Source: Gammaproteobacteria bacterium (lineage in GTDB: Bacteria > Pseudomonadota > Gammaproteobacteria > Poriferisulfidales > Poriferisulfidaceae). Taken from it: DNA of 64,000 bases. The notes beneath the pieces are model-generated. The model ran no database searches and was not told the origin of the DNA. It saw nothing but the letters and a program-made list of their open reading frames with translations. Of this stretch, positions 19,211 through 33,289 are shown in pieces. The position numbers and the translations under genes are program-made. The first letter of the stretch is position 1, and each line of letters starts with the position of its first letter. Location of the stretch: NCBI GenBank assembly GCA_028819565.1, contig JAPPLD010000003.1:102431-166430 (forward strand), read 5' to 3'.

Positions 19211-19271
19211 TATAAATATTTGATTTATAAAGAGAAAAAATGGTCTAAAAAATCCGACCATTTTTTGTTTA
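19211..19271 (+). repeat. AT-rich palindromic repeat, copy 2
   Basis: Between pgeF and the first gene of the secretion cluster. The perfect 11-bp stem AAAAAATGGTC (19235-19245) / GACCATTTTTT (19256-19266) has a ten-base loop TAAAAAATCC, nearly identical to that of copy 3. It is preceded by AT-rich sequence with TTTATAAAG. The shape suits an intrinsic terminator in both directions, but the conserved loop exceeds what a terminator needs. The rest of the 198-bp gap holds only the ribosome site of the next gene. Confidence 0.75.
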
Positions 19272-19329: not shown

Positions 19330-19959
19330 ATGAGTTTTGAAAAAATATCCGGCGTGCGTCGGTGGATGTGGCTGGTAGGTGGACTGCTTCTTCTGCTATC
19401 GGCGGCATCCATCTACGGTGTGGCGCGAGATCCCGGTGAAACTCTTTCATTTCCTAGTCTAGGTGTTAATTCAGCGCACCCGGAAGAGTTTGTCCCCGAA
19501 ATTAATGTAGAGCAGTTGTCGGAATCCTTGGCGCAGGCCTTGAACCGACATCTCGATAAACGGGTTCGTCACACCCTTGAGGAACTGAAGGAAAGTCGAT
19601 TCGCGCAGACACAGTTGATCGAAGAATGGAAGGAAAGGTTGGACGTCAAGATCGAAATGCAAGCTTCGAAGTTGGCGGATCTGGATCAAAAATTGGATTC
19701 GATCAAATACGAGATAAACCAATTGCTGAATACTCTCGAAGATGAAGCACTTGAGCCTTCCATGGAGCCGACATTTGTTTTTCGTGGGATTGAGATATGG
19801 CACGGCCAGATCTATGCATTGCTTGAGTATGAAGGACGCATTGTGCCGGTGCGGGAAGGGGAATCGCGGTTGGGGTGGAGAATCCACGTCATTGATCGCG
19901 ACAGCCAGAAATTGCATGTCGGCGACGGCATGAAGGAATACGTTTTGGAGGTGCAATGA
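19330..19959 (+). CDS. Membrane-anchored coiled-coil protein, first gene of the T4SS cluster
   Basis: 209 residues, not recognised by family. An N-terminal membrane helix (about 12-29, MWLVGGLLLLLSAASIYGV) leaves the rest periplasmic. Residues about 60-140 are a charged amphipathic coiled coil (LAQALNRHLDKRVRHTLEELK). The C-terminal 60 residues (FRGIEIWHGQIYALLEYEGR...) look like a small beta-domain of the PilP/GspC homology-region kind, which would fit an inner-membrane to outer-membrane linker; this is inference only. The ATG follows an AGGAGGA site. It is coupled by ATGA to the next gene, which is a recognised ICE family, so a role in the secretion system is likely. Confidence 0.75.
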   Translation: MSFEKISGVRRWMWLVGGLLLLLSAASIYGVARDPGETLSFPSLGVNSAHPEEFVPEINVEQLSESLAQALNRHLDKRVRHTLEELKESRFAQTQLIEEWKERLDVKIEMQASKLADLDQKLDSIKYEINQLLNTLEDEALEPSMEPTFVFRGIEIWHGQIYALLEYEGRIVPVREGESRLGWRIHVIDRDSQKLHVGDGMKEYVLEVQ

Positions 19960-20345
19960 TGAATGGGGTATGGCATTGGAGGGTCGCGTGGCTGATCGTG
20001 CCCGCGGTTTTGGCCGGAGCCATCGCCTCTCTGGTTTATGGCGTCCAGGCGGCACGCGAGGAATCAAGCCGGTGGCAGGAGACCGAACTGCATGCGTCCC
20101 GTTGGTTGGGGTTGAGCGAGGAGGAATGGCGACGATATCAGACGCGGCGCGCCTTGGTCGGCAAGCCGTTGGCCGAAATGACTCCCTACGAAGTTTTGGG
20201 CATTTACGCGGACGACCCGGAGCAACGGCGGAGGTTCGCGAGAGAAAATGCCCGCTTCATGCTCGACTTTTACCGGCGAACGATGGAGTTTGAAAAACTT
20301 TATCGCCAAGAATTGGCTAGGTTTTCGGATAGACAAAAGCCATAA
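19956..20345 (+). CDS. TIGR03759-like integrating conjugative element protein
   Basis: 129-residue protein with an N-terminal membrane helix (about 9-28) and a helical domain with WLGLSEEEWRRYQ near residue 50, MTPYEVLGIYADDPEQRRRFAR near 75-96, and EFEKLYRQELARF at the end. This pattern matches my recollection of TIGR03759 (PFL_4693 family), a protein of unknown function that co-occurs with ICE conjugation genes. It starts inside the stop of the previous gene (ATGA). After its stop the second in-cluster AT-rich repeat intervenes, so this two-gene unit may be transcribed separately from the main run. Confidence 0.75.
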   Translation: MMNGVWHWRVAWLIVPAVLAGAIASLVYGVQAAREESSRWQETELHASRWLGLSEEEWRRYQTRRALVGKPLAEMTPYEVLGIYADDPEQRRRFARENARFMLDFYRRTMEFEKLYRQELARFSDRQKP

Positions 20346-20443
20346 ACTTTACATTTCGTGATTTTTTATAAAGAAATATATTTATTATCAGTCCTTTAAG
20401 TGGCAAAAAAAATGGTCTAAAAATTCCGACCATTTTTCCTTGC
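20346..20443 (+). repeat. AT-rich palindromic repeat, copy 3
   Basis: Begins with ACTTTACAT at 20346-20354, as in copy 1, continues through an AT-rich block resembling that of copy 1, and ends in the hairpin AAAAATGGTC (20408-20417) / GACCATTTTT (20428-20437), loop TAAAAATTCC, bounded by GC...TTGC. It separates the first two genes of the secretion cluster from the RAQPRD lipoprotein gene. Its composition contrasts sharply with the GC-rich leader that follows. Confidence 0.75.
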
Positions 20444-20470
20444 TTTTTAGAAACAGGTATTGGAGACTGC

Positions 20471-20550
20471 GTGGGCGGTGTAACCCCAAGGATGGGGGCC
20501 GTAGGGTCGCCCCTGCCTTGGGCGGCCCTTTCCCGCCCAGGAGGTGGTGA
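20471..20550 (+). promoter_or_regulatory. GC-rich structured leader that can mask the RAQPRD-gene ribosome site
   Basis: Just before the ATG at 20551 the ribosome site AGGAGG (20539-20544) overlaps the right arm CCGCCCA (20533-20539). That arm can pair with TGGGCGG at 20519-20525, next to it, or with an identical TGGGCGG at 20472-20478. A further GGGCCG (20496-20501) / CGGCCC (20523-20528) pairing competes with the first option. Mutually exclusive stems around a ribosome site are the layout of translational switches, but no known riboswitch class was recognised, and chance pairing in GC-rich sequence is possible. Confidence 0.4.
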
Positions 20551-20964
20551 ATGAAACATGCTGAATGGCTGATTGGCACGACCGCAGCACTGCTGGTGAC
20601 AGGGTGTGAGATGCTGCATCACACGGTCCCGGTTTCGCAGTTTCGGGAATCAAGCGGCACTCCAAGCTCTAGACCGATCAACCATTCGGCATTTTCGATG
20701 TCAACCCCCGATTATTTGGTTCGTCCGGATACCGGCGAACGACAAGTACTTGGGCAGTTGTTGCACGAATTGCAACTGGTCCGGCACTTGATTGATGACG
20801 CCTACGCCCGCCGTGACGAGCGTGCCAGGGTACGGGTGGACTATGCGCGCTTGGCCGACGAATTCGATCGGATCGTAACAGGTTTACGGCGAACCCTGAC
20901 AGTCACCGAGACGGCTCCGCGCGACCGCTTCGACATTACCGGAGACTACCAGCTTTATGAGTAA
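20551..20964 (+). CDS. RAQPRD-family ICE lipoprotein (TIGR01690-like)
   Basis: 137 residues with a lipoprotein signal ending LVTGC (about 15-19). The C-terminal domain reads GERQVLGQLLHELQLVRHLIDDAYARRDERARVRVDYARLADEFDRI and ends with APRD...GDYQLYE, matching the layout of the RAQPRD family of ICE proteins, although the name motif is reduced to TAPRD. Residues about 20-60 form a non-conserved linker longer than I expect for the family. It overlaps the next gene by 8 bp and begins the main T4SS run. Function in conjugation is not established. Confidence 0.78.
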   Translation: MKHAEWLIGTTAALLVTGCEMLHHTVPVSQFRESSGTPSSRPINHSAFSMSTPDYLVRPDTGERQVLGQLLHELQLVRHLIDDAYARRDERARVRVDYARLADEFDRIVTGLRRTLTVTETAPRDRFDITGDYQLYE

Positions 20965-21196
20965 TTCCATGCTGAGCCAGTTCGAGGTTACTTCCGGCAT
21001 TTCAGGCGAAACGTTGGCGGAGGTGACAGCTGCCGCCTGTCTGTTGGTCGTAACCCTCTGGGTTTCCTGGGTGGCTCTCTCCAGTCTGCGGCAATTGCGC
21101 GATGAAATCATAGCGGTTGGAGATGTCGCGTCCCGAATCCTTTGGGGGGGTCTGGTGTTCTGCATGGTCGTCGCCCTGATCGCTTTTGTGGAGTGA
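20957..21196 (+). CDS. TIGR03758/DUF3262-like small membrane protein of ICE T4SS
   Basis: 79 residues with two membrane helices (about 22-40 and 60-78) and the opening FEVTSGISGETLAEVTAAA, as recalled for the DUF3262 (PFL_4701-type) family that always sits between RAQPRD and the DUF2976 protein. Probably an inner-membrane part of the channel or pilus apparatus. Position, size and topology all fit. Overlaps the previous gene by 8 bp and is followed after 4 bp by the next. Confidence 0.75.
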   Translation: MSNSMLSQFEVTSGISGETLAEVTAAACLLVVTLWVSWVALSSLRQLRDEIIAVGDVASRILWGGLVFCMVVALIAFVE

Positions 21197-21200
21197 ACTC

Positions 21201-21551
21201 ATGAAAAAGCTTGGTTTTCTTTTGGTCTGCGCCTTGGCGTCCTATCCGAATCTGGGTACGGCTGTCAACACGCTGGACCTGCCTGTTTTCGACGGTGTCG
21301 CTGCCGATGCGACCGATCCTTTCTCATTCATCAAGTCCGTTGCAATCACGGGCACGGCCCTGGTGTTCGGCTTCCTGGTTGTCGGCGCATTTCTCGGCTA
21401 CGGCGGCGGGCTGATTGCGAAGCTCAACCAAGCGCGAGTCAAGGGAGACTGGGGCAGCCTCGGGATTTACCTGGGAACCGGTCTGTTGGTGGTGATCATC
21501 ATCGCCCTGATGGGCTATATGGGCGGACAGATCTTGTCCGATTTCGAGTGA
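21201..21551 (+). CDS. TIGR03745/DUF2976-like pilin-candidate membrane protein
   Basis: 116 residues with a signal peptide (KLGFLLVCALASYPNLGTA) and two hydrophobic helices (about 51-72 and 89-111) separated by a short basic loop. This is the VirB2/TraA-like topology, and the DUF2976 family occupies the same slot in MPF-G systems, so it may be the pilin or a pilin-like subunit; that role is inference. The ATG at 21201 is preferred over an upstream GTG-type extension because it starts the signal peptide cleanly. The stop overlaps the next start (GTGA). Confidence 0.75.
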   Translation: MKKLGFLLVCALASYPNLGTAVNTLDLPVFDGVAADATDPFSFIKSVAITGTALVFGFLVVGAFLGYGGGLIAKLNQARVKGDWGSLGIYLGTGLLVVIIIALMGYMGGQILSDFE

Positions 21552-21871
21552 CGCGACCGGCCTCGTCCCTCGGTTTCGAGCCGCCCATGTTCCGGGGGCT
21601 TAGCGGCACTGAACTGACCGCAACAATCGGGTTGTCGATGATTCCGGGCATGGTAGTGGCGGGTCTACTCTGCTTGTGGATCGGTTCTCTGCTATGGATT
21701 CTTCCGGTACTGGTGCTGAATGCTTTTGCCACGGTTCTGTTTGCCGGCACGGTGCTGCGACACCTTAAGCAAAATCGCCCAGCTAATTGGTACTTGCAAC
21801 GCTTGGCACGCCACTGCGGGCAACGGGCAGACATCATTTGGCGAGAAGGACCCTGGAGGATAGAACGGTGA
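21548..21871 (+). CDS. TIGR03750/DUF3487-like VirB3/TraL-type membrane protein
   Basis: 107 residues. The N-terminal LGFEPPMFRGLSGTELTATIGLS and C-terminal LKQNRPANWYLQRLARHC with two membrane segments in between fit the DUF3487 family, regarded as the TraL/VirB3 counterpart in ICE systems. The start is a GTG overlapping the previous stop by 4 bp (GTGA); its last bases overlap the next start. Predicted inner-membrane component of the mating-pair channel. Confidence 0.78.
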   Translation: MTRPASSLGFEPPMFRGLSGTELTATIGLSMIPGMVVAGLLCLWIGSLLWILPVLVLNAFATVLFAGTVLRHLKQNRPANWYLQRLARHCGQRADIIWREGPWRIER

Positions 21872-22500
21872 TAGCCCGCAGTTTCCGCGATGAGGAATTG
21901 AACCGCCGTCAGTATGTCCGGGCGTTGCAGGCCGGGCTCATATTTCTGGCCGTGTCCCAACTGGTGGCATATGCCGGATGGTGGCATGCTTCTGGGACGC
22001 AGCGCCTGAGCTTGCCGCCCCAGTTACGTTATGGCACGACTATTCAGAGCGGAGAGATCCAGCCGTGGGAAGTGTATGTGTTCGCCGGATACATTCACCA
22101 GCAGATCAACAACTGGACCGACAACGGTGCCCTTGACAACCTGAAAAACATCCAGCGTTTGTCAGCGTTTCTCAGCCCAGACTATCGCTATTGGCTGACG
22201 CGGGAACATCAGCGTCACGAAGCCCAGTTTCGAAACCGGCAGCGCAGCGTCAGTCCGGTGCCGGGAAGTTACGGCAACGCATCCGTGCAACCAATCGGCA
22301 AAGATACTTGGCAGGTTGTTCTCGATGTCCGCTTGAGAGACTATCTGGAGAGTCAGCTCTACAAGGACATAGATGTCCGCTACTTCTTGGAAGTCGTATT
22401 GCTGGATTCCGACCCTGAAACCAACGAATGGGGTCTGGTCCTCAACCGGCAGCACCGCCCTCCGGAGCGTTTGCGCTCCCACTTGTCCACCCTCGAATGA
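21868..22500 (+). CDS. TIGR03746/DUF2895-like VirB8/TraE-type protein
   Basis: 210 residues. A cytoplasmic tail, a membrane helix (about 22-38) and a periplasmic domain containing YGTTIQSGEIQPWEVYVFAGYIHQQINNW and DYRYWLTREHQRH, the pattern of the DUF2895 (PFL_4703-type) family. Such proteins are considered VirB8/TraE equivalents that nucleate the channel. The start is the GTG at 21868, preceded by GGAGGA seven bases upstream and overlapping the previous stop. It is coupled to the next gene by ATGA. Confidence 0.8.
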   Translation: MIARSFRDEELNRRQYVRALQAGLIFLAVSQLVAYAGWWHASGTQRLSLPPQLRYGTTIQSGEIQPWEVYVFAGYIHQQINNWTDNGALDNLKNIQRLSAFLSPDYRYWLTREHQRHEAQFRNRQRSVSPVPGSYGNASVQPIGKDTWQVVLDVRLRDYLESQLYKDIDVRYFLEVVLLDSDPETNEWGLVLNRQHRPPERLRSHLSTLE

Positions 22501-23261
22501 AACAACTTCTTGCACTGTCGCTGTGGCTGGTGTCGCTGCCGGCCCTAGGGGTGTCTTCCCTGGTTTACGTCGGCGACCCACTTCCGGTGCTGCTGCCGGT
22601 CGGGAAAGAACGGCGGATTGAGATCGAGGGTGCACGGGAAGTTCGTGTCGGGCTGTCCGAGTCGCTGAGAAAGCGCCTGGGCGTTGAAAGTGCAGGCCCC
22701 CATGTCTGGCTAACCGCCCAGGACACCCTGTTTCCGCAGCGCGTGTACCTTGAGACTGAAACCGGATTGCTGGTGTTGGTCATCCGGACCGACCCGCGAG
22801 CATCGGCGGAACCGTTGAGCATCGCGGTTGATTTAAGCGGTTCCCAAAATTCGCCTGTGCCGCCGTCCGAGAAGTCGCCCAATTACGTGGATCTGGCGCG
22901 TTACGCCATTCAAGCGCTGTACGCGCCAGACCACCGCGAGGAGCCGATTCGTGGGATCAGGCGGACCCCGGTCGATGAACAGCCCGTCGCCTTGTTCCGT
23001 TGCCGGGACGCCTATCCCTCTGCATGCGGGGGCGCGGTTGAGTCCGTTCCCCATACCGCATGGGAAGCGCAGCCCTATTACGTGACCGCGGTCACGATCC
23101 GGAATCGCCTGTCCGAACCTTTAGAGCTTGACCCTCGCGACATCCGCGGCCGGTTCGTGGCGTCTACTATCGTGCATCCCTATCTCGAAGCGGCCGGAAG
23201 TCTCCGGGATGCCACCACGGTCGTATTGATTTCCCGTATTCCATTCGGACAGGCTCAATGA
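22497..23261 (+). CDS. TIGR03749/DUF3438-like VirB9/TraK-type secreted protein
   Basis: 254 residues with a signal peptide ending near SLPALG. The mature protein is rich in beta-strands and includes VLLPVGKERRIEIEGAREVRVGL, DTLFPQRVYLET and a C-terminal PYYVTAVTIRNRLSEPLELDPRDIRGRF, as in the DUF3438 (PFL_4704-type) family, the TraK/VirB9 analogue forming the outer-membrane core collar. It starts at the ATG overlapping the previous stop and overlaps the next gene by 4 bp. Confidence 0.82.
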   Translation: MKQLLALSLWLVSLPALGVSSLVYVGDPLPVLLPVGKERRIEIEGAREVRVGLSESLRKRLGVESAGPHVWLTAQDTLFPQRVYLETETGLLVLVIRTDPRASAEPLSIAVDLSGSQNSPVPPSEKSPNYVDLARYAIQALYAPDHREEPIRGIRRTPVDEQPVALFRCRDAYPSACGGAVESVPHTAWEAQPYYVTAVTIRNRLSEPLELDPRDIRGRFVASTIVHPYLEAAGSLRDATTVVLISRIPFGQAQ

Positions 23262-24490
23262 ATACGCGCCGTTCGTTGTTCGCATTGTTGGCAGGAGTGG
23301 CCCTGTTGCTGCTGCTGTCGGTGACATTCTTGTCTACTTCCCCGCCCCCCGACGAATCAGAGAACCCGGTTTCCGCCAGCCGGGAACTGGATGAGGCTGC
23401 CGAGGAAGTCCGTGCTGTGGCGACCAGCATGCGCCGCTTGGAGCAGAAGATATTGGATCAGGCGGTGCAGATTCGCGAACTTGGCGAATCGTTTGCCCAG
23501 ATGGGTCACCGCGTCGAGCAGTTGAAGCAGTATCAGCGGAGGCAGGAGGAAAGCTTGGCGGTCGTGCCGCCTCGCTCCCTGCCGGACGATTCGGCGCAGG
23601 GCGGCAAGGCGTTTAATCTGGACACCTTGACTCACGACCTTCCGGCTGGCCTGGCAACTGATTTCGCGGAAATCCCGACCGCCCAGTCCCTAGTTTGGGT
23701 GGAGCCGGTCGATGGTGGGGGAGCATTGCGCCAGAACCTGGAAGCGGTGTCGACTGATTTGGCTGCAAGTGCCGGGGCTGGCGAATCTCCAAGATTCTAC
23801 ATTCCGCCCGCCATCCTCTCCGGGTTGTCCCTGACGGCTCTGGTAGGACGCATTCCGCGTGGGGGAACGGTACAGGATCCGTGGCCATTTGTGGCAGTCA
23901 GCAAAAACGACAACCTGACGGCGAACGGCATGCGTCTCCCCGGATTGCGGGGCATCCTGTGGCGGGGCGTCGTGCGCGGTGACGCAGTGCTGTCCTGCGC
24001 GAGCGCATCTGTCCGCAGTCTGGTGTACGTGTTCGACGACGGCACATTCCATGTGGCGAAAGCACCGGAGCAGGAAGGTTTCGGCTATCTCGCTGACAAG
24101 TTCGGCAATCCGTGTCTGCAGGGAGAGATTCACACCACCGCCCCTGAGAGCATGGGGACGCATCTACTGGCCAGTGTCCTGGCTGGCATGGGGGGAGCCT
24201 TCGCTGAGTCGCAGGTGCGGCGCAGCGCTTCCGCGGGGACCGAGACAGCCCATGTGGAGGGAGATGCGTTCAGCTACCTGCTTGGCGAGACAGTGCAGGG
24301 CGCGGCCTCGACCTACGGGGATTACCTGCTGCGATTCGCCAACGACACCTGGGACGCGGTCGTCGTGCCGGCAGGGCGCGAAGTGGACATCCATGTCACG
24401 GATGCGATTCCAATCATTCACTCTCCCACCCGGAGGATTTATGACGAACCGGTTCCCTTTTCGGCCGTGGCTCTTGGCAGTTTGGATTAG
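23258..24490 (+). CDS. TIGR03752-like VirB10/TraB-type channel protein
   Basis: 410 residues: short cytoplasmic end, membrane helix (about 8-27), a periplasmic coiled coil (about 40-100, MRRLEQKILDQAVQIRELGESF) and a C-terminal beta domain with IPRGGTVQDPWPFVAV, LPGLRGILWRGVV and DKFGNPCLQGEIHT, then a helical segment with ASVLAGMGGAFAE typical of TraB/VirB10 outer-membrane-spanning regions. In VirB10 proteins this links inner and outer membranes. The last 50 bp overlap the next gene. Confidence 0.83.
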   Translation: MNTRRSLFALLAGVALLLLLSVTFLSTSPPPDESENPVSASRELDEAAEEVRAVATSMRRLEQKILDQAVQIRELGESFAQMGHRVEQLKQYQRRQEESLAVVPPRSLPDDSAQGGKAFNLDTLTHDLPAGLATDFAEIPTAQSLVWVEPVDGGGALRQNLEAVSTDLAASAGAGESPRFYIPPAILSGLSLTALVGRIPRGGTVQDPWPFVAVSKNDNLTANGMRLPGLRGILWRGVVRGDAVLSCASASVRSLVYVFDDGTFHVAKAPEQEGFGYLADKFGNPCLQGEIHTTAPESMGTHLLASVLAGMGGAFAESQVRRSASAGTETAHVEGDAFSYLLGETVQGAASTYGDYLLRFANDTWDAVVVPAGREVDIHVTDAIPIIHSPTRRIYDEPVPFSAVALGSLD

Positions 24491-24794
24491 TGCTTGCGCC
24501 TCTCCGGTCGAACTCCCGGAAGCCGACGGCACGGTGCGCGAATGGTACCGGCAAGCCATGCTGTCTGGAGTTCCGGTCCCAGCGGTCCGCCCGATGCCAG
24601 CCGGCTTGGCGAGACGCGATTCCTTCACGGCGGAGATGGATCGGCAGTTGCGCCGTGACTTCAAGGTGCTGGCCAACCCGAGGCTGGTCCTGTATGTCTA
24701 TCCGCATCTCACGGCCGCCGGGACCCCGATCCCCGGCTATGCCACTTGGTTTCACGTATTCGAACGCGGCCCCGTCTTGGAAGTCGTGCGCTGA
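24441..24794 (+). CDS. TIGR03751-like conjugative transfer lipoprotein
   Basis: 117 residues with a lipoprotein signal (WLLAVWISACAS). The C-terminus NPRLVLYVYPHLTAAGTPIPGYATWFHVFERG is very close to the pattern I recall for TIGR03751, the lipoprotein between the TraB-like and VirB4-like genes, taken to be the VirB7/TraV counterpart that completes the outer-membrane core. The ribosome site GGAGG lies within the preceding gene, and the start is 50 bp before that gene's stop. Confidence 0.82.
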   Translation: MTNRFPFRPWLLAVWISACASPVELPEADGTVREWYRQAMLSGVPVPAVRPMPAGLARRDSFTAEMDRQLRRDFKVLANPRLVLYVYPHLTAAGTPIPGYATWFHVFERGPVLEVVR

Positions 24795-24824
24795 ACTTTT
24801 CCCGAAATATAACGAATACAGGAC

Positions 24825-24944
24825 ATGAACCACCACACTTTCCCTTACACGAAGGAGCACAAACTCGCTGGGCTGGATGGTGGCCTCAACCGCCTGCAGC
24901 AAATCCGATTCGCCGTGTACGCAGCGGGGAGGGTGCCGTGCTGA
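24825..24944 (+). CDS. Possible 39-residue ORF in the T4SS run
   Basis: An ATG-started frame fills most of the otherwise empty 143 bp between the lipoprotein gene and the next membrane-protein gene, and its stop overlaps that gene's GTG start by 7 bp, a coupling pattern used throughout the cluster. It has no membrane helix, no recognised motif and only a poorly spaced AGGA upstream. It may be a leader-type coupling ORF or chance. Confidence 0.3.
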   Translation: MNHHTFPYTKEHKLAGLDGGLNRLQQIRFAVYAAGRVPC

Positions 24945-25225
24945 GTATTCGCATATTCCATCTATTGGCTCTCGGACTGTGCCTGATCCTGATCGCGAAA
25001 TACATGCAGCTTATGCAGGTATCGGTCCGCGGTCTCGACCACCTGCTGGCACGCCGCTTCTTCGACGTGGATGGCCTGACGACCGAGATCCGGGCTTGGG
25101 TGGAACGCCCTCATGACGCCGCGCCAGGTCAACACCCTTTGAGGGGACGCGTGGGTCGCAACGTGTATTTGTGGCTCTGCCACCGCTTGCGCCAAGTGGC
25201 GGGACTGGATTCCGGAGCGGATTGA
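24938..25225 (+). CDS. Small single-helix membrane protein in T4SS cluster, unknown family
   Basis: 95 residues from the GTG at 24938, which has GGGAGG five bases upstream. One N-terminal membrane helix (IFHLLALGLCLILIAKYM, about 5-22), then a mostly helical, basic domain. No family recognised. It overlaps the TraU-like gene by 1 bp (TGATG). The reference ICE gene order, as I recall it, has no gene of this kind between the TIGR03751 lipoprotein and the VirB4 ATPase, so it may be particular to this lineage. Confidence 0.65.
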   Translation: MLSIRIFHLLALGLCLILIAKYMQLMQVSVRGLDHLLARRFFDVDGLTTEIRAWVERPHDAAPGQHPLRGRVGRNVYLWLCHRLRQVAGLDSGAD

Positions 25226-26322
25226 TGCGTTTCTCGGTTCTGGCCTGCGTACTTTTGTCCGGCTTCCTCCCGGCCATGGCGGAAACCTTCACCACGGCGG
25301 ATGTGGCGCGGCGTTCGCTTCAATCCAACTGTCTGGACTGGAAGATCGTCGGAGTGTGCCTTTGGCTGCACTGCAAATACGGACGCTGTCGGATCAACAC
25401 GACGCCGCGGGTTAGTCACTACTTGCCGGACTTGGTCTTTACTGCGTACGACCACACCGGTTTCTCTCCCTGGACGGAATTACGCGCCTTGTTGCCCGGC
25501 GTGGGAAACCTGTTGCAGGGGGGGTCGTTCCCGTCGACGGAGACAGCAGACCAGCACTACCTGCGTTTCAAGGAGGTCGATGCAATCGGACACCCGTTTC
25601 CGCTGCGTCGGAAGGTTTTCAACGTGGTCTACCTCTGCCGTTCGCAGGCCAAACCGATGTTTCCGTATTTCATTTCCGTGCTGGATCATGCGGAATGGCG
25701 GGGCGGGCTGGAATCCGCACGTCCGGAAAGCCTGACGCCCGGTCTGCGCGAGATCGGCGACTGGCCCCGGTATTCATGGGGGTCGGTCTTTCCGCGTTCT
25801 GGCTTCGTGTTGCAGGCTGAAGATGCAAAGGCGGCTGCCGTTGCCGTGCAGCGGGCCGCCGACATCGTGACCCAGCCGAATCAGGCTCGGGTCTACGTGC
25901 CATTCGGCTACGCCGGTCATCGCCGGGTGACCCACGGCGATCCCGATGCCACCAACCGTGAGTCCTGCGAGTGGTCGGGTGGGTCGTGGGATTCCGGTCA
26001 GCCGGCCTCGAAGCCCGTCCACTGTCCGCCCAAGGCCCCGCTGTCGGAGTGCGTCATTCCTGGCCCGCCACCATCACATACGCAACCTGGGCACTGCCGT
26101 CAGCAGGAGCAGTGGGCTTGGCTGCCCCCGATTAACGAGCGCAATGCACGCTGGCAGATGATTAGCCCACGTATTCAGTCGCATTGCGAGACCTTCGGAT
26201 CTCCCCACGACTGGTCGTTCGACAAGACCAGCGAAGACGGGAGTTATGCCTGGAACCTGTGGCGTCCCTACGAATGTTGCGCCCCGGGCAAAGGGAAATT
26301 CATTGGCCACAAAACTTTCTGA
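25225..26322 (+). CDS. TIGR03756-like TraU-type secreted protein
   Basis: 365 residues with a signal peptide ending FLPAMA. The mature part is cysteine-rich (more than a dozen Cys, e.g. GVCLWLHCKYGRCRI and YECCAPGK), implying several periplasmic disulfides, and contains LRFKEVDAIGHPF and MFPYFISVLDHAEWR, typical of the TraU/TIGR03756 (PFL_4710-type) family needed for DNA transfer in F-like and ICE systems. In the reference elements this gene follows the VirB4 gene; here it precedes it. ATG at 25225 overlaps the previous stop. Confidence 0.82.
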   Translation: MRFSVLACVLLSGFLPAMAETFTTADVARRSLQSNCLDWKIVGVCLWLHCKYGRCRINTTPRVSHYLPDLVFTAYDHTGFSPWTELRALLPGVGNLLQGGSFPSTETADQHYLRFKEVDAIGHPFPLRRKVFNVVYLCRSQAKPMFPYFISVLDHAEWRGGLESARPESLTPGLREIGDWPRYSWGSVFPRSGFVLQAEDAKAAAVAVQRAADIVTQPNQARVYVPFGYAGHRRVTHGDPDATNRESCEWSGGSWDSGQPASKPVHCPPKAPLSECVIPGPPPSHTQPGHCRQQEQWAWLPPINERNARWQMISPRIQSHCETFGSPHDWSFDKTSEDGSYAWNLWRPYECCAPGKGKFIGHKTF

Positions 26323-26334
26323 GGAGGAACCATC

Positions 26335-26580
26335 GTGGGCAAAAACAAAAAAAAGAAAAAGTCAAAAGAGAAAATCACTTTAGAACGGATCATGGAGCAG
26401 CCGATTGCCAAGCGCCTGTACGTATCGCTGATACCAATCGACAACCTGCTGGGTGACATGAGGATGGAGATTGATGAAGGAGAGCGTGACGAAGACGATT
26501 CCTACTACGTTCGAATTCAGGAACTGCGGGAGGGTTTGGTCCGAACCCTGGATGATGTGTTGCAGGATTGCGGTGAGTAA
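26335..26580 (+). CDS. Small charged protein upstream of the VirB4-like ATPase, unknown
   Basis: 81 residues with no recognised family. The start is a GTG with a perfect AGGAGG seven bases upstream, the strongest ribosome site of the run. The first 14 residues are almost all Lys/Asn/Ser, and the rest is acidic and helical (MRMEIDEGERDEDDSYYVRIQELREGL). No signal peptide or membrane helix, so cytoplasmic. It overlaps the ATPase gene by 8 bp, suggesting matched production and possibly a partner of the ATPase; that is inference. Confidence 0.65.
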   Translation: MGKNKKKKKSKEKITLERIMEQPIAKRLYVSLIPIDNLLGDMRMEIDEGERDEDDSYYVRIQELREGLVRTLDDVLQDCGE

Positions 26581-29365
26581 GCGCAAACGGAATGCGTTCG
26601 ACCGCTGGCTCGCCGGGTTCCGCCCGGCGCTGCCAGCGGATCTGGCACATGCGCCGGATCCGGAAGCCCGTTGTTGGAGCGGGGAGGGCTGCCGTCCGCT
26701 GACCCGGAAGCAGTTCGAGCGGCCGCTTTGGGGCAACCGGTCGGGGCGACAGGAGATTCGGACCTCGGCATCCTTTGCAGATCTACTGTTTCCGAAGGCC
26801 GAGCTCGAACCGGGGATGATCCTGATGAAGGATCTTTTCAGCGTCGGACGTTTTTTCGATGTATCCCCCGCGCAAACCGAGGGAAGGCCGGATCATGTCA
26901 TCGAGGACTTGCATCAGCGCCTCGTGCCCTTGTTGCGCGATGTTTTCCCGCCGAACCAGAATCGGCCTTGGATTGCGCAATTCTTCGTATATGACCGCCA
27001 CCATTTGGGCAATAACCTCCAAACGCTTGAGGAATATTTCAGCCCGGAAGCTCGGGACTCGGTCTACTCGAAGCACTGGATGGAAATGTTGCGCGAACAT
27101 TACAAGGACGCCTGCAAAGGAAACGGCTTTTTCTTTGATCCCGCCAGCCAAATGCCATGGAAAGGGAAAGTGCGCCATATCCGGTTGTGCGTCTGGCGCA
27201 TTGAAGAGCCGGGAGGCATTCCGGATGGACAGCATCTGGATGATTTGTGTGAGCGTTTGGGTCATTCATTGACCCAGGTGGGTATCCGTCTGACCCCTTT
27301 GGACGGTGACAGTCTCTGTCATTGGCTTGGTGACTGGTTCGGGCCGGCTCGGGAAATCTCGGATTCCCCTAAGGGGCCGCTGGTTGCCACACCGCTCGCC
27401 CTGCTGAAGGGAACGGCCTTGGGAGATTTGGCACATCGGGCCTTGCGTCATGGCGCCCCGTGGTCTTCGACCAAGAATGATTGCTGGTATTTCCATGGCC
27501 GGCCGCACCGCTTCCTTACAGTCAATGCAATTTTGGGGGAACCCCGGGTCGGTCACTTGACTGCAGAGCGAGTGATTGGCGATCGCCAGCAGACATTGTG
27601 GGACCAGGTGCCAGCAGGGACGGCCTGGATGATGGCTGTGGTGTTTACCACGCAAGACGAAATTCTGGAGCATGTCGCACGCGTCAAGCGCAATGCGGTC
27701 GGTGGTGATCCACAGGCGATGGCGATTCGCACCCTGGCGGAAGAGGCGGTGCGCCAGGTATCCGACGGCAACCCGATCTTGCCGGTGTTTAGTGGAGTAT
27801 TCGTTTCGGCTTCGGACGACTCTGCTTTGGAGCAACGGGTTCGCGAACTATCTGCCACCCTGATGGCTCACGGCATTGCACTGGTTCCTCCCCGAGACGA
27901 TCCCTTAGCACAGGATTCCTATGTCCGTGCGTTGCCGTTCAACTTCAATCCGGCTCAGGACCAGCGTTTCTATGTGCGCCGTTCCCGCTTGTGGTTCATG
28001 GATCACGTGGTGAGATGCCTCCCGGTGTACGGGCGCACGACCGGGACGCGGCATCCGGGCCTACTGGCTTGGAATCGCGGCGCGGAACCTCTGTCGTTCG
28101 ACCCGCTCAATCCGGTGGATCGAGCCAAGAATGCGCACCTGTTCGTATTCGGGCCGACCGGATCTGGAAAAACTGCCTTTCTCGTCAATACCTTGCTGCA
28201 TACGGTTGCTGTGCATCGTCCCCGGCTGTACCTGGTTACGGCATTGCCGACGTTTGGTCTCCTCGCACAACACTTTCAGTCAAAAGGTCTGTCAGTCAAC
28301 CACGTAAACGGGGGCCAAACTTCCATTCCACCGTTTGCCGATGCACGGTTGCTTTTGGAGACAGGGAAAGAATCCGAAAGTGACGAAATGAACCCCGAGG
28401 CCGGACGCGATCTTCTGGGAGAGATGGAGATACAGGCGAGGCTGATGATTACGGGAGGAGACCCGAAGGAAGAACAACGCTTGGCACGAGAGGATCTAAA
28501 CCTGATCCGGAAGTCTCTGCTGGCGGTCGCTCAGGCAGCGACGAACCACCCGGACGAGCCCGTACTGACCGAAGATTTGTCCACTTTGATGCATCAGGCG
28601 GCTGAATCCGGCCGTCTGCGAGAGGACCGGTTGAGCGAGGATCAGCGACGCAGCTTGAGCCGTATGGCCAATGCCATCGAACTATTTTGCACCGGGCGGG
28701 CGGGGCAGATATTCAACCGCCCGGGCGAGACCTGGGCCGAGTCCGATGTGACAGTGGTGGAATTGGGCGCCTTGGCGCACCGTCGCAACGAGGCATGGTT
28801 GGCGGTGGCGATGAGCGGGTTGCTGTCGCGCATCAACGACCAGGTGCAGGATCAGCAATACTCGGCCCGGCAGACCGTGGTGGTCTTGGACGAGGCGCAC
28901 CTGTTCCTGAAGAACCCCTTGATCTCTCCCTACATTCTGTCGATTTCGGCGATGTGGCGTACATACGGCGCTTGGCTGTGGATCGCCACTCAAAGCCTGC
29001 GGCAGGTTCCGGAAACCGCGCGCGAATTGCTGAACCAACCGGAATGGTGGGTCTGCATGGCCATGGAGCGGGACGAAGTGGAAATGATCGGGCGTTTCCG
29101 CCAACTCGACGAAGAGCAGAAAGCAATGATCCTCTCTGCTCGAAAGGAACCCGGAAAGTACACGGAGGGGGTGGTGCTTTCCAGCAAATTGGTCGCGCCC
29201 TTTCGCAATGTCGTGCCCGCTCTTTCGCTGGCCCTGAGCCAGACTGAAAAGAACGAAAAGGCTCACCGGGCGAGCCTCATGCGGCAACACAATTGCTCGG
29301 AACTCGAGGCGGTTCACCGGGTTAGCGAATCAATCCGAAATCAACGCCGGGGGCGGGGGCGGTGA
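26573..29365 (+). CDS. TIGR03744-like VirB4/TraC-type conjugation ATPase
   Basis: 930 residues from the GTG at 26573 (CAGGA five bases upstream). The secretion motor of the T4SS. Walker A GPTGSGKT lies near 526-533 and Walker B VVVLDEAHLF near 768-777, with a following ATQSLRQVPE sensor region. The N-terminal half holds the VirB4-type assembly domain (HRFLTVNAILGEPRVGHLT). Length and order match the PFL_4706-type ATPases of ICEs. Both nucleotide motifs are intact, so the motor appears functional. Its stop overlaps the next GTG (GTGA). Confidence 0.92.
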   Translation: MSKRKRNAFDRWLAGFRPALPADLAHAPDPEARCWSGEGCRPLTRKQFERPLWGNRSGRQEIRTSASFADLLFPKAELEPGMILMKDLFSVGRFFDVSPAQTEGRPDHVIEDLHQRLVPLLRDVFPPNQNRPWIAQFFVYDRHHLGNNLQTLEEYFSPEARDSVYSKHWMEMLREHYKDACKGNGFFFDPASQMPWKGKVRHIRLCVWRIEEPGGIPDGQHLDDLCERLGHSLTQVGIRLTPLDGDSLCHWLGDWFGPAREISDSPKGPLVATPLALLKGTALGDLAHRALRHGAPWSSTKNDCWYFHGRPHRFLTVNAILGEPRVGHLTAERVIGDRQQTLWDQVPAGTAWMMAVVFTTQDEILEHVARVKRNAVGGDPQAMAIRTLAEEAVRQVSDGNPILPVFSGVFVSASDDSALEQRVRELSATLMAHGIALVPPRDDPLAQDSYVRALPFNFNPAQDQRFYVRRSRLWFMDHVVRCLPVYGRTTGTRHPGLLAWNRGAEPLSFDPLNPVDRAKNAHLFVFGPTGSGKTAFLVNTLLHTVAVHRPRLYLVTALPTFGLLAQHFQSKGLSVNHVNGGQTSIPPFADARLLLETGKESESDEMNPEAGRDLLGEMEIQARLMITGGDPKEEQRLAREDLNLIRKSLLAVAQAATNHPDEPVLTEDLSTLMHQAAESGRLREDRLSEDQRRSLSRMANAIELFCTGRAGQIFNRPGETWAESDVTVVELGALAHRRNEAWLAVAMSGLLSRINDQVQDQQYSARQTVVVLDEAHLFLKNPLISPYILSISAMWRTYGAWLWIATQSLRQVPETARELLNQPEWWVCMAMERDEVEMIGRFRQLDEEQKAMILSARKEPGKYTEGVVLSSKLVAPFRNVVPALSLALSQTEKNEKAHRASLMRQHNCSELEAVHRVSESIRNQRRGRGR

Positions 29366-30693
29366 CCTCCCGGATTCGCGCTTGTGTCTGGTACTTGACG
29401 CTTTCGGCATTGCCGGCAGTGTCTGACGCGCAGATCAAACTGCCGAGCAGCGAGGAATTGGGCTTGTATTACACGCTCGGAGGATCCCGTGCGGTTCCGA
29501 CAACTCCGGGCGAGACGTTGCGTATCAAGTTGCTCCCGGATATCCAAGCCGGAGCCACTTACAGTTGCGGGAAATTCGATTTCCGTTTCCAAGTCCAGGA
29601 CATCCTGAAACGGCTGGAAGACCAGTTGACTACCCTGAAGTCGCTTCCAGAGCAAATTCTTTTGGCACTGCCGGGTGGTCTGTTTTGCCGTGCGTTTCCG
29701 GGTGCCTGCCAATTGATGCAGTACTACACCATCCGTGCGGGCGAAGCCTACAAGCTGGCGCTGGGTTCCTGCCAGGAGATCGAGAAAAGCATTGCAGACC
29801 GAGGCCCGACCGGTGCTTGGACGAAGGTTGCCAAGTCGCTGGAGTGGGGATATCAGGCACACGAGGAAGGCAATGTTCTGGAAGCACAGGAAGAAGCGGA
29901 GAGTGCCCCTGAGAAGGGGCTGACCTGGGTGGGCGGTCGGCGTGCGGGGGGCGTCGGGCAGGACATGATCCGTCCGGTATACGACAGCGCCCGCGCCGGG
30001 TGGTGCCTGCTCAATGGCGAGCCGGCCGTGTGCCAGAAGACAGAACGCGCGACCGAAATTTCGACGTTGTTCAAGACCCCGGAGGAGGTAGCAAACTGGC
30101 TGGTCGATATTGCCGGAGAACAAGCCATCAGCCTGGTGGACGGCACGCCGAGCCCGACCGTTCCCGGACACGGTCTTTTGCCCTTGATCGAACCCGAGCG
30201 GCAGCGCATCGAAGAAGTGTTGAAACGGTTGGTCAGGACGGATCCGGTGGAATTTCTGGAAGAGGATCTGGTAGGTATCTCCAGCCGGAATCTCGTCGTG
30301 CGTCGCGAAGTGATCGACGGTCTGCAGGCCCGCCCGGACGCAGACTGGCGTATTCAGCGCTTGGCTTCGGAATTGGCGACCGCGCGTGTCGTGGAAAAGA
30401 CATTTCTGGCCCGTGCGGCGTTGATAGCAGGGCGCCAAGAACCCAATGTTGCGGCATTGGATCCGGCTCGCAAGGCTCTAAATACGGCATTCGAGCGCGT
30501 CAACCACGAGGTGGATTTCGTGTTGAACGAAGTTCGGGCCTCGCACCGCTTGGCATCCGAGACGATCCGAACCTTTATCGAATATGAAATGCTTGGAGAC
30601 GCCCTAAAGCCGATCCGGTTGACCCCGTCCGAGGATACTGATTCGCGGCTGATCGACGGTGGCTTTCCATTGTCTGGAGATTCTCCCCGATGA
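29362..30693 (+). CDS. TIGR03755-like ICE secreted protein
   Basis: 443 residues beginning at a GTG that overlaps the previous stop. The signal peptide ends near AVSDA. The mature start SEELGLYYTLGGSRAV and the following YSCGKFDFRFQVQDIL match the recalled TIGR03755 (PFL_4711-type) family, sometimes compared with TraH of F-like systems. Several Cys residues and long helical segments (about 315-420) suggest a periplasmic assembly factor. Followed by a short membrane protein and TraG, as in reference elements. Confidence 0.82.
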   Translation: MTSRIRACVWYLTLSALPAVSDAQIKLPSSEELGLYYTLGGSRAVPTTPGETLRIKLLPDIQAGATYSCGKFDFRFQVQDILKRLEDQLTTLKSLPEQILLALPGGLFCRAFPGACQLMQYYTIRAGEAYKLALGSCQEIEKSIADRGPTGAWTKVAKSLEWGYQAHEEGNVLEAQEEAESAPEKGLTWVGGRRAGGVGQDMIRPVYDSARAGWCLLNGEPAVCQKTERATEISTLFKTPEEVANWLVDIAGEQAISLVDGTPSPTVPGHGLLPLIEPERQRIEEVLKRLVRTDPVEFLEEDLVGISSRNLVVRREVIDGLQARPDADWRIQRLASELATARVVEKTFLARAALIAGRQEPNVAALDPARKALNTAFERVNHEVDFVLNEVRASHRLASETIRTFIEYEMLGDALKPIRLTPSEDTDSRLIDGGFPLSGDSPR

Positions 30694-31061
30694 CCGGTTC
30701 CTGGTCGCGCCGAATACTCGGAGTGTTGGCAGCTATCCTGCTGTTAGGTGTCGCACTCATCTATGCCGTGCAGCAGCTGGCTATCGCAACGCCTGAGCAC
30801 CTGAATCGCACAGCAGCGCATTTGGCACAGTGGCGGGAATTTCTTGAACGTTATGGCTTTTGGCTTCATCTCGGCTTGCATGGCGCTACCTACCTGTATC
30901 TGATCTTGCGCTGGAGGCAGTTAATCGGCTGGCTCGACCGAAAACGAATTGAGCGGGGGCACATGCCGCTGTCTCCTCATGAGCAACGTCAGTTGATGTT
31001 CGCTGTTGCTGCGGTATGCGTGGCTTACGAGATTCTGCTGATGTTGCGCAATCTGTATTAA
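30690..31061 (+). CDS. Small membrane protein between TIGR03755-like and TraG genes
   Basis: 123 residues with three hydrophobic segments (about 9-29, 54-72 and 102-121) and a basic middle loop (RWRQLIGWLDRKRIERGH). No family recognised with confidence. It overlaps the previous gene by 4 bp and is 5 bp before traG, so it belongs to the same operon and probably sits in the inner membrane with TraG. Confidence 0.7.
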   Translation: MTGSWSRRILGVLAAILLLGVALIYAVQQLAIATPEHLNRTAAHLAQWREFLERYGFWLHLGLHGATYLYLILRWRQLIGWLDRKRIERGHMPLSPHEQRQLMFAVAAVCVAYEILLMLRNLY

Positions 31062-31066
31062 CAGAC

Positions 31067-32638
31067 ATGTACGCGACGATCCCGACATTCAGCTACATCG
31101 AGGTTTACCTGACCATGTTCGGGTGGAGCATGTACGAATTGTTATTCGAGTTGGCTGATGATTTGAACTTGCTACTAATTCCGTTCCTGGTCATCATCGT
31201 TCGCAATTTCATCGTTCCGCTTAGCACCGAAAACATTTTTCCCAACAGCGGAGGGTCTGTCAGCCAGATGCGGGTAGATCTTCCGGTTGCATTAGTGGTC
31301 TTCGTTTTCATGGTGGTGCCTTACGTCAAGGTTGAACCGAATTCCATCGAATACACCCCGGTCTGTCAACTTGGGGATGCTACCCATACGTATGGGGACA
31401 CCGACACCACATACGACACCACCCGGTTGGCACGTTTCCACGAAGAACACCCTAGAATCCCGATGTTCTGGGCCGTCGTGCTGTCGATTAGTGGCGGCAT
31501 CACTCAAGCCGTGCTAAGGCATCTACCGTGTTTTCAGGACTACTCCGGTCTCGCGTTTCGTACTCGTCACGCTTTCATCAAGGATCCCGGCGTCCGACAG
31601 GAGTTCGACCATTTTGCCAGCCAATGTTTTGTACCGGCTTGGCGGAAATACGAAATTTTCCAACCTGCGGAAGAAATTGTGCCGCGCAAAGACGCCGAGT
31701 ATCCGGGGAATCGCTATTTCCTGGAAAAGCCCGGCTATTACGCGTTGTGCAGCACAGTCACAGAACAAGGCCCCTGTTCGTTCGACCCCTACCCTCGGCC
31801 TAGGACGGAAGTCAAACGCTGGGAAGGAGACCGCCAACTGCCGGTTTGCCGGGACTGGTGGCTTGGTAACAACCGAAATGAAGGATTGATGAAGCTTCTC
31901 GTGCGTTTTGTGCCGGACATGGACGGGATCGCAAATTTTACGAAAGGAACCTACAGCCGGGACTTCATCGAAGAGCAAATGGTCCGCAACACCATTCTCA
32001 ATGGCCCGCGTCGCTATGGCATCGGTGGGCCGGACAACGAGATATTGGCGGGTCTGGCGGCATTCGCGGCAGGCTCCGGGATCGCCAGTGGTCTCGCTGC
32101 TTGGGCGGCAAGTGGAAGTTTAGCGGCATTCACGTTATCAACCGCGGTCGGTGCGACGGCTTTCGTTGGTTCCGAGGCCTTGGGGCTGTATGCCCGGCTG
32201 CACATCATGCGGCGCATCGCACCAATGGCGCAAAGCCTGATACTGATGGTGCTGTACATGTTACTGGGGGCGTACTTGTTCCTGACGTTCTACAGCCTGA
32301 CGGCGGCGCTTCGGATCATGGTCATGATCGTGGCGGTTCGGTTGTTCTCAATGATGTTCGGAATATCGAACTTTCTCGATGACGCGTTGATTGATGCGAT
32401 GTACCCCGGCATGAAACTTGGGGATGCTGGGCGCTGGGAAGTGGATCGGATCGCGCTTGGATACGGCACGATGGCATTGCACATGCTGTTGCCTCTGGGA
32501 ATGTTGTGGGTGATTTATGCGGCAGGTAATGCTGCCATGCGTGGGTTGGACGCGCTGGGGCCTTCCTCGGACCCGACGGGTGTCGGAAATGCCGGTCGAA
32601 TCAGTGCCTTGGGAATGGCGCGGAACATGAAACGCTGA
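31067..32638 (+). CDS. TraG N-terminal-domain protein (T4SS inner-membrane)
   Basis: 523 residues. The N-terminus SYIEVYLTMFGWSMYELLFELADDLNLLLIPF with SGGSVSQMRVDLPVALVVFVF is the TraG-N signature, and membrane helices cluster at both ends (about 40-60, 80-100, 330-440 and 460-490). TraG-N proteins act in pilus assembly and mating-pair stabilisation. Only the N-domain is present, as in ICE systems, without the long C-terminal entry-exclusion region of F TraG. Last recognised gene of the secretion run; a structured segment begins four bases after its stop. Confidence 0.87.
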   Translation: MYATIPTFSYIEVYLTMFGWSMYELLFELADDLNLLLIPFLVIIVRNFIVPLSTENIFPNSGGSVSQMRVDLPVALVVFVFMVVPYVKVEPNSIEYTPVCQLGDATHTYGDTDTTYDTTRLARFHEEHPRIPMFWAVVLSISGGITQAVLRHLPCFQDYSGLAFRTRHAFIKDPGVRQEFDHFASQCFVPAWRKYEIFQPAEEIVPRKDAEYPGNRYFLEKPGYYALCSTVTEQGPCSFDPYPRPRTEVKRWEGDRQLPVCRDWWLGNNRNEGLMKLLVRFVPDMDGIANFTKGTYSRDFIEEQMVRNTILNGPRRYGIGGPDNEILAGLAAFAAGSGIASGLAAWAASGSLAAFTLSTAVGATAFVGSEALGLYARLHIMRRIAPMAQSLILMVLYMLLGAYLFLTFYSLTAALRIMVMIVAVRLFSMMFGISNFLDDALIDAMYPGMKLGDAGRWEVDRIALGYGTMALHMLLPLGMLWVIYAAGNAAMRGLDALGPSSDPTGVGNAGRISALGMARNMKR

Positions 32639-32641
32639 CAT

Positions 32642-32790
32642 GGGTTTGGACAACATGAAAGACGCGTGTGATCTGTTTTCCAAACCCCGAAAGAGGGGGT
32701 ACGGTTGCGGGAAGCCGGATGCCTTTCGGATCAGAAACGCGGATTCGATCTCCAGCCGAAAGGCTGGTTTCGGACCGCAACCGTTTTTTG
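32642..32790 (+). ncRNA. Candidate structured RNA / branched terminator after traG
   Basis: Four stems fit in this 149-bp gap. GGGTTTGGA (32642-32650) pairs perfectly with TCCAAACCC (32679-32687). ACGGTTGCGG (32701-32710) pairs perfectly with CCGCAACCGT (32775-32784) and encloses two hairpins: TCGGATC (32726-32732)/GATTCGA (32742-32748, one G-U pair) and CCAGCC-GAAA-GGCTGG (32752-32767) with a GNRA tetraloop. A T run (32784-32789) directly follows the outer stem, giving a terminator-like end. The AGGAGG site of the next gene is six bases further on. It could be an elaborate terminator, an attenuator for the coiled-coil gene, or an independent small RNA. Confidence 0.5.
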
Positions 32791-32806
32791 GAATAAGGAG
32801 GAATTC

Positions 32807-33289
32807 ATGAAGGAACCCCATGCCAAAGTGGCTTCGGTTGCAGCAAAGAAGTCGGCACCGTCGCCTGGATTTGATACGATGGCTGCCGTGAATACATTGA
32901 CGAAAGCAGGCATTGAACAGAGACCGGCGGATGCCATTGTCGGGGTCGTGCGCGATGCGCAGTGCGAGCTGGCCACGGAGGAAAGTCTGCTGTCCACCAA
33001 GCTTGTGCTGGAATCGGATATGACCACATTGAAGGCGGATCTGAGGGCAGAGATGGCCGAGTTGAGGGTCGAATTGCGATCGGAGATGGCCGAACTGAAG
33101 GCCGAATTGCGATCGGAGATGACCGAACTGAAAGTCGAATTGAAGTCGGACATGGCGGGGCTGAAATTGGGCATGAAGAACTTGGAAGCGAGTATAGAGA
33201 AACAGTTTGCCCAGCTTTACCGATATCTCTTGGTTGGAGGAGGGGGATGCGTTGCTGCGATCGTGGGGATATTGAGCGTCACGACATGA
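32807..33289 (+). CDS. DUF1640/CCDC90-like coiled-coil membrane protein (copy 2)
   Basis: 160 residues from the ATG at 32807 with AAGGAGG six bases upstream. Residues 21-60 (FDTMAAVNTLTKAGIEQRPADAIVGVV) align with copy 1 at 8180. Residues 70-124 are five 11-residue repeats of the pattern S-E-M-x-E-L-K-x-E-L-R, a hendecad coiled coil, then a heptad segment and a C-terminal membrane helix (LLVGGGGCVAAIVGILSV). Likely a membrane-tethered rod of unknown role. It sits at the end of the T4SS island behind the structured segment and may be a separate transcription unit. Confidence 0.82.
   Translation: MKEPHAKVASVAAKKSAPSPGFDTMAAVNTLTKAGIEQRPADAIVGVVRDAQCELATEESLLSTKLVLESDMTTLKADLRAEMAELRVELRSEMAELKAELRSEMTELKVELKSDMAGLKLGMKNLEASIEKQFAQLYRYLLVGGGGCVAAIVGILSVTT
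33014..33178 (+). repeat. Five tandem 33-bp repeats inside the DUF1640-like gene
   Basis: Five in-frame 33-bp units start at 33014, 33047, 33080, 33113 and 33146. Units 3 and 4 differ at only a few positions, which points to recent duplication; outer units are more diverged. Copy number could vary by slippage without shifting the frame, changing only rod length. Confidence 0.85.

What the first reader, a model, noticed from the sequence alone, without database searches (positions are those of the whole stretch)
19330..32638. Intact ICE-type T4SS channel with no relaxase, coupling protein or integrase
Every gene of the run is open and most are translationally coupled, and the VirB4 motor has intact Walker motifs, so the machine appears maintained. 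Yet the mobilisation half of an ICE is missing within the window and ordinary housekeeping genes sit directly on both sides. This suggests a chromosomally fixed secretion system used for DNA release, protein export or contact with other cells, or a channel that serves relaxases encoded elsewhere. Basis: frames and motifs seen; family roles recalled; purpose inferred.
Basis: partly seen in the sequence, partly recalled or inferred. Interest (0 to 1): 0.72.

Follow-up and report, generated by a model that had tools for sequence, protein, structure and literature searches.

The report
Conjugation machine turned fixed secretion channel
The chromosome of this Candidatus Porisulfidus-type bacterium (likely a sponge symbiont) holds a complete conjugation-type channel with none of the DNA-nicking enzymes searched for; related species have kept it under purifying selection, most of them at the same chromosomal spot, so it likely exports proteins instead of spreading itself.

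Summary
Window 19330-32638 is a full MPF_G (ICEHin1056-type) T4SS of 17 open, mostly overlapping genes. Genome searches find no MOBH, MOBP, MOBF or MobC relaxase and no tyrosine integrase beyond two read as XerC and XerD. Correction: the genome does encode a VirD4-type coupling protein on another contig. It is not the MPF_G TraD: its plasmid relatives sit beside MobC relaxases, but here MobC is missing and the protein lacks the C-terminal tail those relatives keep.

The T4SS lies between pgeF and rhodanese-purH in 4 of 6 congeneric genomes, is absent from a fifth with the junction closed, and sits elsewhere in the sixth. Its genes are under purifying selection like nearby housekeeping genes. 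Its VirB4, with those of a second family of the order and one further MAG, forms a 100/100 clade apart from 16 ICE-type VirB4s.

Best reading: an old, vertically inherited, relaxase-independent ("MOBless") machine, most likely exporting proteins; the tail-less coupling protein is an unproven partner. MOBless T4SSs and a relaxase-less MPF_G clade (Legionella LGI) are published. New are the fixed, integrase-less, TraD-less clade and the truncated MOBC-type coupling protein: a new variant of a known kind.

The parts
18202..19131 (+). left flank: pgeF (polyphenol oxidase/laccase family), housekeeping
   Evidence: PF02578 233 bits
19330..19959 (+). gene 1: 209-aa membrane and coiled-coil protein, weakly TraP-like
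   Evidence: NF033885 17 bits, below cut-off 135
19956..20345 (+). gene 2: TIGR03759-like ICE protein
   Evidence: 38.7 bits, cut-off 126.4
20551..20964 (+). gene 3: RAQPRD family protein
   Evidence: PF09686 46.2 bits, over cut-off
20957..21196 (+). gene 4: 79-aa membrane protein
   Evidence: open frame, counterpart in 4 of 4 other genus genomes with the cluster
21201..21551 (+). gene 5: small two-helix protein, pilin-like by position (recalled)
   Evidence: DUF2976 16.4 bits, below cut-off
21548..21871 (+). gene 6: TIGR03750/DUF3487
   Evidence: PF11990 58.2 bits; TIGR03750 62.4, cut-off 70.75
21868..22500 (+). gene 7: TIGR03746/DUF2895 (VirB8-like role, recalled)
   Evidence: 148.9 bits, over cut-off
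22497..23261 (+). gene 8: TIGR03749/DUF3438 (VirB9/TraK-like role, recalled)
   Evidence: 141.4 bits, over cut-off
23258..24490 (+). gene 9: TIGR03752 (VirB10/TrbI-like)
   Evidence: 185.5 bits, cut-off 241; PF03743 25 bits
24441..24794 (+). gene 10: lipoprotein-like protein, TIGR03751 position (recalled)
   Evidence: frame read; open and conserved
24938..25225 (+). gene 11: 95-aa membrane protein
   Evidence: conserved
25225..26322 (+). gene 12: TIGR03756/TraU
   Evidence: 255 bits, over cut-off; PF06834 117.6
26335..26580 (+). gene 13: 81-aa charged protein overlapping the start of VirB4
   Evidence: dN/dS 0.01-0.05 in G000-G001, G000-G004 and G003-G004
26573..29365 (+). gene 14: VirB4/TraC motor ATPase, TIGR03744
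   Evidence: 847.7 bits; Walker motifs
29362..30693 (+). gene 15: TIGR03755
   Evidence: 256.3 bits, cut-off 270.45
30690..31061 (+). gene 16: 123-aa membrane protein
   Evidence: open, conserved; no Pfam hit
31016..32638 (+). gene 17: TraG_N protein, among the most conserved genes of the cluster
   Evidence: PF07916 90.6 bits; dN/dS 0.02-0.05
32705..33289 (+). variable CCDC90-like coiled-coil gene, absent with the cluster in G002
   Evidence: PF07798 51.3 bits
33684..34202 (+). right flank: rhodanese/YgaP-like protein
   Evidence: PF00581, PF11127
34273..35841 (-). right flank: purH
   Evidence: PF01808 390.7 bits

Best explanation
This is a complete MPF_G conjugation channel fixed in the chromosome of a Candidatus Porisulfidus-type genus, with no relaxase of the families searched and no element integrase found in the genome, kept by purifying selection, and it likely works as a relaxase-independent machine that exports proteins. 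Shown: cluster content; the same site in 4 of 6 congeners; purifying selection; a VirB4 clade apart from ICE VirB4s; no TraD in the cluster; and, elsewhere in the genome, an orphan MOBC-type coupling protein that lacks both its relaxase and its C-terminal tail. Inferred: an MPF_G ICE lost TraD, TraI and int long ago; VirB4 drives assembly of an envelope channel and pilus; substrates are probably proteins, delivered by the tail-less VirD4 (candidate partner) or without any coupling protein, into neighbouring bacteria or host cells. Substrate and recipient are unknown.
Against: No substrate, effector or expression evidence. G002 keeps the VirD4 without the channel, and G007 has the channel while the VirD4 query finds nothing there, so the two need not be partners. 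5 of 12 other genomes with MPF_G loci also gave no MOBH hit and 41 of 75 loci outside the clade showed no strong TraD in the stretch held (some stretches are short), so absence by these searches is not unique. Legionella LGI islands transfer although no relaxase was recognised (PMC3864950, passages). G005 carries the cluster at another site, so it has moved at least once or the chromosome was rearranged.
Confidence: 0.5

Rival explanations
1. A domesticated DNA-exchange or DNA-uptake machine (Ced-like or ComB-like) that moves the symbiont's own chromosomal DNA between cells without a relaxase.
For: Chromosomal, relaxase-less, under selection; a TrwB-fold DNA-translocase-like coupling protein is conserved in the genus; the archaeal Ced/Ted systems are a precedent (PMC9905601, passages).
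Against: No DNA-processing partner (for example a nuclease) in the cluster; the VirD4 is kept in G002 without the channel; DNA movement was not tested. ComB is recalled, not checked.
Confidence: 0.18
2. A conjugative element or helper channel that still transfers DNA with an unrecognised relaxase or one supplied by passing plasmids.
For: Legionella LGI islands without a recognised relaxase transfer (PMC3864950, passages); 5 of 12 MPF_G-bearing genomes show no MOBH.
Against: No element integrase, no TraD in the cluster, fixed site in 4 of 6 congeners, no relaxase of four families in the single-contig G004. MPF_G is reported to use MOBH only (PMC3158045, section 11).
Confidence: 0.12
3. A decaying ICE remnant on the way out.
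For: TraD, TraI and integrase missing; whole cluster absent in G002; the CCDC90-like neighbour is disrupted or much shorter in G001.
Against: All 17 T4SS genes open in G000, G001, G003 and G004 with dN/dS well below 1; Walker motifs kept in 7 of 7 further clade VirB4s checked.
Confidence: 0.05

Closest known systems
MPF_G / GI-T4SS of ICEHin1056- and PAPI-1-type ICEs
   Same: Same VirB4 (TIGR03744) and most of the TIGR037xx set in nearly the same order.
   Different: No TraD, no MOBH TraI, no integrase; TIGR03756 stands before VirB4; VirB4 forms a separate clade.
Legionella LGI GI-T4SS clade (PMC3864950; passages seen)
   Same: MPF_G type, genus-restricted clade, purifying selection, no relaxase recognised.
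   Different: LGI keeps TraD (lgiT) and has unrelated integrases, and transfer was shown; here neither was found and the site is fixed in 4 of 6.
MOBless T4SS class (PMC3158045; passages and section 11)
   Same: Chromosomal VirB4 cluster without a co-located relaxase in a small genome; presumed protein export.
   Different: That class is defined by co-location; here the whole genome and congeners were searched for four relaxase families, and the type is MPF_G.
MOBC mobilisation module, CloDF13 type (PMC7434980; passages seen)
   Same: The orphan VirD4 is closest to coupling proteins next to MobC on plasmids.
   Different: MobC absent in 7 of 7 genomes searched here; C-terminal tail missing.
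Archaeal Ced/Ted DNA import (PMC9905601; passages seen)
   Same: Conjugation machine made a chromosomal, relaxase-less host system.
   Different: Other protein families and another domain of life; DNA transfer is not shown here.

Membership tests
MPF_G type T4SS | TIGR03744 VirB4 with the TIGR037xx accessory set | tested here: met
Integrative conjugative element | relaxase (MOBH for MPF_G) | tested here: not met
   PF07514 0 in G000 and 0 in G001-G005
Integrative conjugative element | cognate coupling protein TraD in the element | tested here: not met
Integrative conjugative element | integrase and attachment sites | tested here: not met
   tyrosine recombinases only XerC/XerD-like; serine recombinases and att sites of the cluster not searched
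MOBless (protein-exporting) T4SS | VirB4 cluster without relaxase | tested here: met
MOBless (protein-exporting) T4SS | demonstrated protein substrate | not testable with these tools
   needs an experiment
Legionella LGI GI-T4SS clade | retained TraD and an adjacent integrase | tested here: not met
   definition from PMC3864950 passages
VirD4/TraD coupling proteins (the orphan on C24) | T4CP Pfam domains and fold | tested here: met
MOBC mobilisation module | MobC relaxase beside the coupling protein | tested here: not met
   0 of 7 genomes, positive in 4 of 4 others in the same call, two of which gave rows of the profile
Ced/ComB-type DNA import | DNA transfer without a relaxase | not testable with these tools
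   needs an experiment or strain-level recombination data

The most novel reading that the evidence does not exclude
A lineage of MPF_G conjugation machines left the mobile-element world before the families of this order split, became a host organ of marine symbionts, and in the Porisulfidus family was rewired to a coupling protein captured from an unrelated MOBC element, which shed its relaxase and its relaxosome-binding tail: a mosaic, relaxase-free system for cell-to-cell delivery inside sponges.
Probability: 0.27. Interest if true: 0.77.

Novelty: new variant of a known kind. Interest (0 to 1): 0.52.

Why it matters
Non-conjugative T4SSs are best known from the MPF_T and Dot/Icm lineages of pathogens (recalled). 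A fixed MPF_G lineage in an uncultured, likely sponge-associated bacterium would add another conjugation type that was tamed, would show how the DNA-specific parts (TraD, TraI, integrase, coupling-protein tail) are shed, and would give a concrete target for asking how sponge symbionts act on each other or on their host.

Tried and rejected
Split ICE: a relaxase/TraD/integrase module elsewhere was looked for and not found; the only VirD4 is of another family (37-50 bits to ICE TraDs, 32.5 bits to an ICE TraD profile, but 310-341 bits to the 30 plasmid coupling proteins listed). tRNA integration relic: the orphan VirD4 starts 24 bp behind tRNA-Ser(TGA), but the last 18 bases of the tRNA have no second copy with up to 3 mismatches in the 20-kb stretch L031. 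Defence protein: the VirD4 has a PADLOC mad8 match of 49 bits and HerA and DndH rows in the fold list; the ten L031 proteins and dapB show housekeeping neighbours and one HTH gene, no defence partner, so this is not favoured, not excluded. TIGR03760: 0 of 9, but its control rang over the cut-off in no genome, so it adds little. PDB sequence search with the VirD4 profile: none. The 22-bp stems after pgeF and after gene 2 look like terminators. Papers: two name Porisulfidus once each (listing only); searches listed nothing on this system, in an open-licence library only. Limits: dN/dS is by Nei-Gojobori, with dS near or above 1 for G000-G004. The VirB4 tree warned of long branches (L042, L049, L045), without L045, listed none. 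'Same contig' is inferred from equal contig lengths: of 9 VirD4 clusters and 8 VirB4 clusters on contigs over 1 Mb, 4 match and the others do not (only each cluster's longest contig is shown). The tail comparison covers the best 120 of 231 proteins; the VirB4 protein search scored a capped 7995 candidates, so its 22 clusters are not exhaustive.
Full report
What is there. The window lies in a 1.8-Mb draft genome (31 contigs, 96.67% complete). Congener G004 is a single contig of 1,593,361 bases, the length of OY288106.1, titled 'uncultured candidatus Porisulfidus sp.', and both show the same VirB4 match, so the window belongs to that genus as the tool groups genomes. A sponge origin is inferred from isolate names and recall. 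The run 19330-32638 contains the MPF_G set: TIGR03759-like, RAQPRD, TIGR03750, TIGR03746, TIGR03749, TIGR03752, TIGR03756/TraU, TIGR03744 VirB4, TIGR03755 and TraG_N, with small membrane proteins between. In the ICE loci TIGR03756 follows VirB4; here it precedes it.

Fixation. G001, G003 and G004 have the same genes in the same order between rluD-pgeF and rhodanese-purH. In G002 the aligned ends of pgeF and the rhodanese gene are 344 bases apart and no T4SS gene matches in the 20 kb held; the whole-genome VirB4 search is also negative there. The spacer keeps a short membrane-protein frame that the window also has at 33456-33596. G005 (76% complete) has the cluster on a contig next to msrA- and tyrS-like genes (names recalled from the translations), so at another site, without the first two genes upstream on that contig. 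So: 4 of 6 share the site, one lacks the cluster, one has it elsewhere. GC is 58.0% for the cluster and 57.9% for the window.

Selection. For G000 against G001, dN/dS is 0.04-0.27 over 17 T4SS genes (VirB4 0.09, TraG_N 0.04) with dS 0.12-0.69; rluD, rhodanese, purH, dapB and carA give 0.04-0.13 with dS 0.19-0.33. For G003 against G004 the T4SS genes give 0.01-0.34. dS of several T4SS genes is somewhat higher than that of the flanks. The neighbouring CCDC90-like gene differs in length and its aligned stretch has an in-frame stop in G001.

Missing mobilisation half. MOBH PF07514: none in G000, G001-G005, G007 or G055. That call found it in 7 of 12 other genomes with MPF_G loci, one barely (E 9e-4); 5 of 12 had none, so absence alone does not set this lineage apart. 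MOBP PF03432: 0 of 7. MOBF PF08751: 0 of 6 near-complete genomes, plus one 65-aa contig-end fragment in G005. MobC profile: 0 of 7. Tyrosine recombinases: two in G000, XerC- and XerD-like by neighbours. A profile of 16 ICE TraDs scores above 200 bits in 34 of 80 loci; it finds nothing in the genus clusters, G007 or L049, but 41 of the other 75 loci also lack a strong hit in the stretch held, some because the stretch is short.

Tail loss. Among the 120 best homologues listed (of 231), the 36 nearest (56% identity or more) end 2-20 residues after the conserved SP motif, one 39; of the 84 others 79 could be measured and carry 33-56 residues, and the remaining five are visibly tailed. A [DN]V[DGE] end is found in 82 of 84 against 1 of 36. 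Acidic coupling-protein tails are reported to bind relaxosome proteins such as TraM (PMC7434980, passages). Loss of tail and relaxase together suggests a changed substrate, by inference.

Age and clade. VirB4 of the genus, of G007 (another family of the order) and of G055 (locus L049) form one clade with 100/100 support (96/92 for G055 with the genus) against 16 ICE-type VirB4s (also with 45 rows, with a long-branch warning). G007 has both halves of the cluster, split by CBASS-like and type I restriction genes and bordered by thiG. L049 borders TerC and ABC-transporter genes and shows no TIGR03755 or TraG_N match in the stretch held. Neither has space for TraD between the TIGR03759-like and TIGR03745-like genes. 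Four contigs of 1.35-2.02 Mb seem to hold both a clade VirB4 and a near-relative VirD4, judged by equal contig lengths.

How it likely works. VirB4 and the VirB8/9/10-like proteins would build an envelope-spanning channel with a pilus; TraU and TraG_N would stabilise contact (family roles, recalled). With no relaxase the substrate is most likely protein. The tail-less VirD4 may feed the channel; against this, G002 keeps it without the channel, and in G007 the VirD4 query finds nothing although the channel is there. A coupling-protein-free mode as in Ptl or ComB (recalled) stays open.

Known or new. MOBless T4SSs are a known class (PMC3158045), and a relaxase-less MPF_G clade under purifying selection is known in Legionella (PMC3864950), but with TraD and integrases. 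The fixed site, the missing TraD and integrase, and the truncated MOBC-type coupling protein set this apart: a new variant of a known kind.

Noticed in passing
window 19240-19261 and 20412-20433: Two copies of a 22-bp inverted repeat (ATGGTC...GACCAT) after pgeF and after gene 2, terminator-like; none expected by chance; one further exact copy among the loci held, in L050.
   Followed up: partly
window 32705-33289: Fast-changing CCDC90-like coiled-coil gene beside the T4SS: 36-54% identity between congeners, with an in-frame stop in the aligned stretch of G001, and gone with the cluster in G002.
   Followed up: partly
window 33456-33596; L035 12102-12290 (minus): Short single-helix membrane-protein frame kept between the cluster and the rhodanese gene, also present at the T4SS-less site of G002.
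   Followed up: no
L042 154-10187: In G007 a patatin plus SMODS (CBASS-like) pair and a type I restriction system stand inside the T4SS cluster.
   Followed up: no
genomes behind L056, L060, L087, L115 and L044 (G057, G064, G065, G063, G034): Five MPF_G-bearing gammaproteobacterial genomes outside the clade gave no MOBH relaxase hit: divergent relaxases or further MOBless systems.
   Followed up: partly
P0037-P0120: Family of mostly 570-590-aa VirD4-like proteins, a few named from Methylophaga, Methylotenera and Methylobacillus, with a near-invariant C-terminal DVD-type tip; genomic partners not examined.
   Followed up: no
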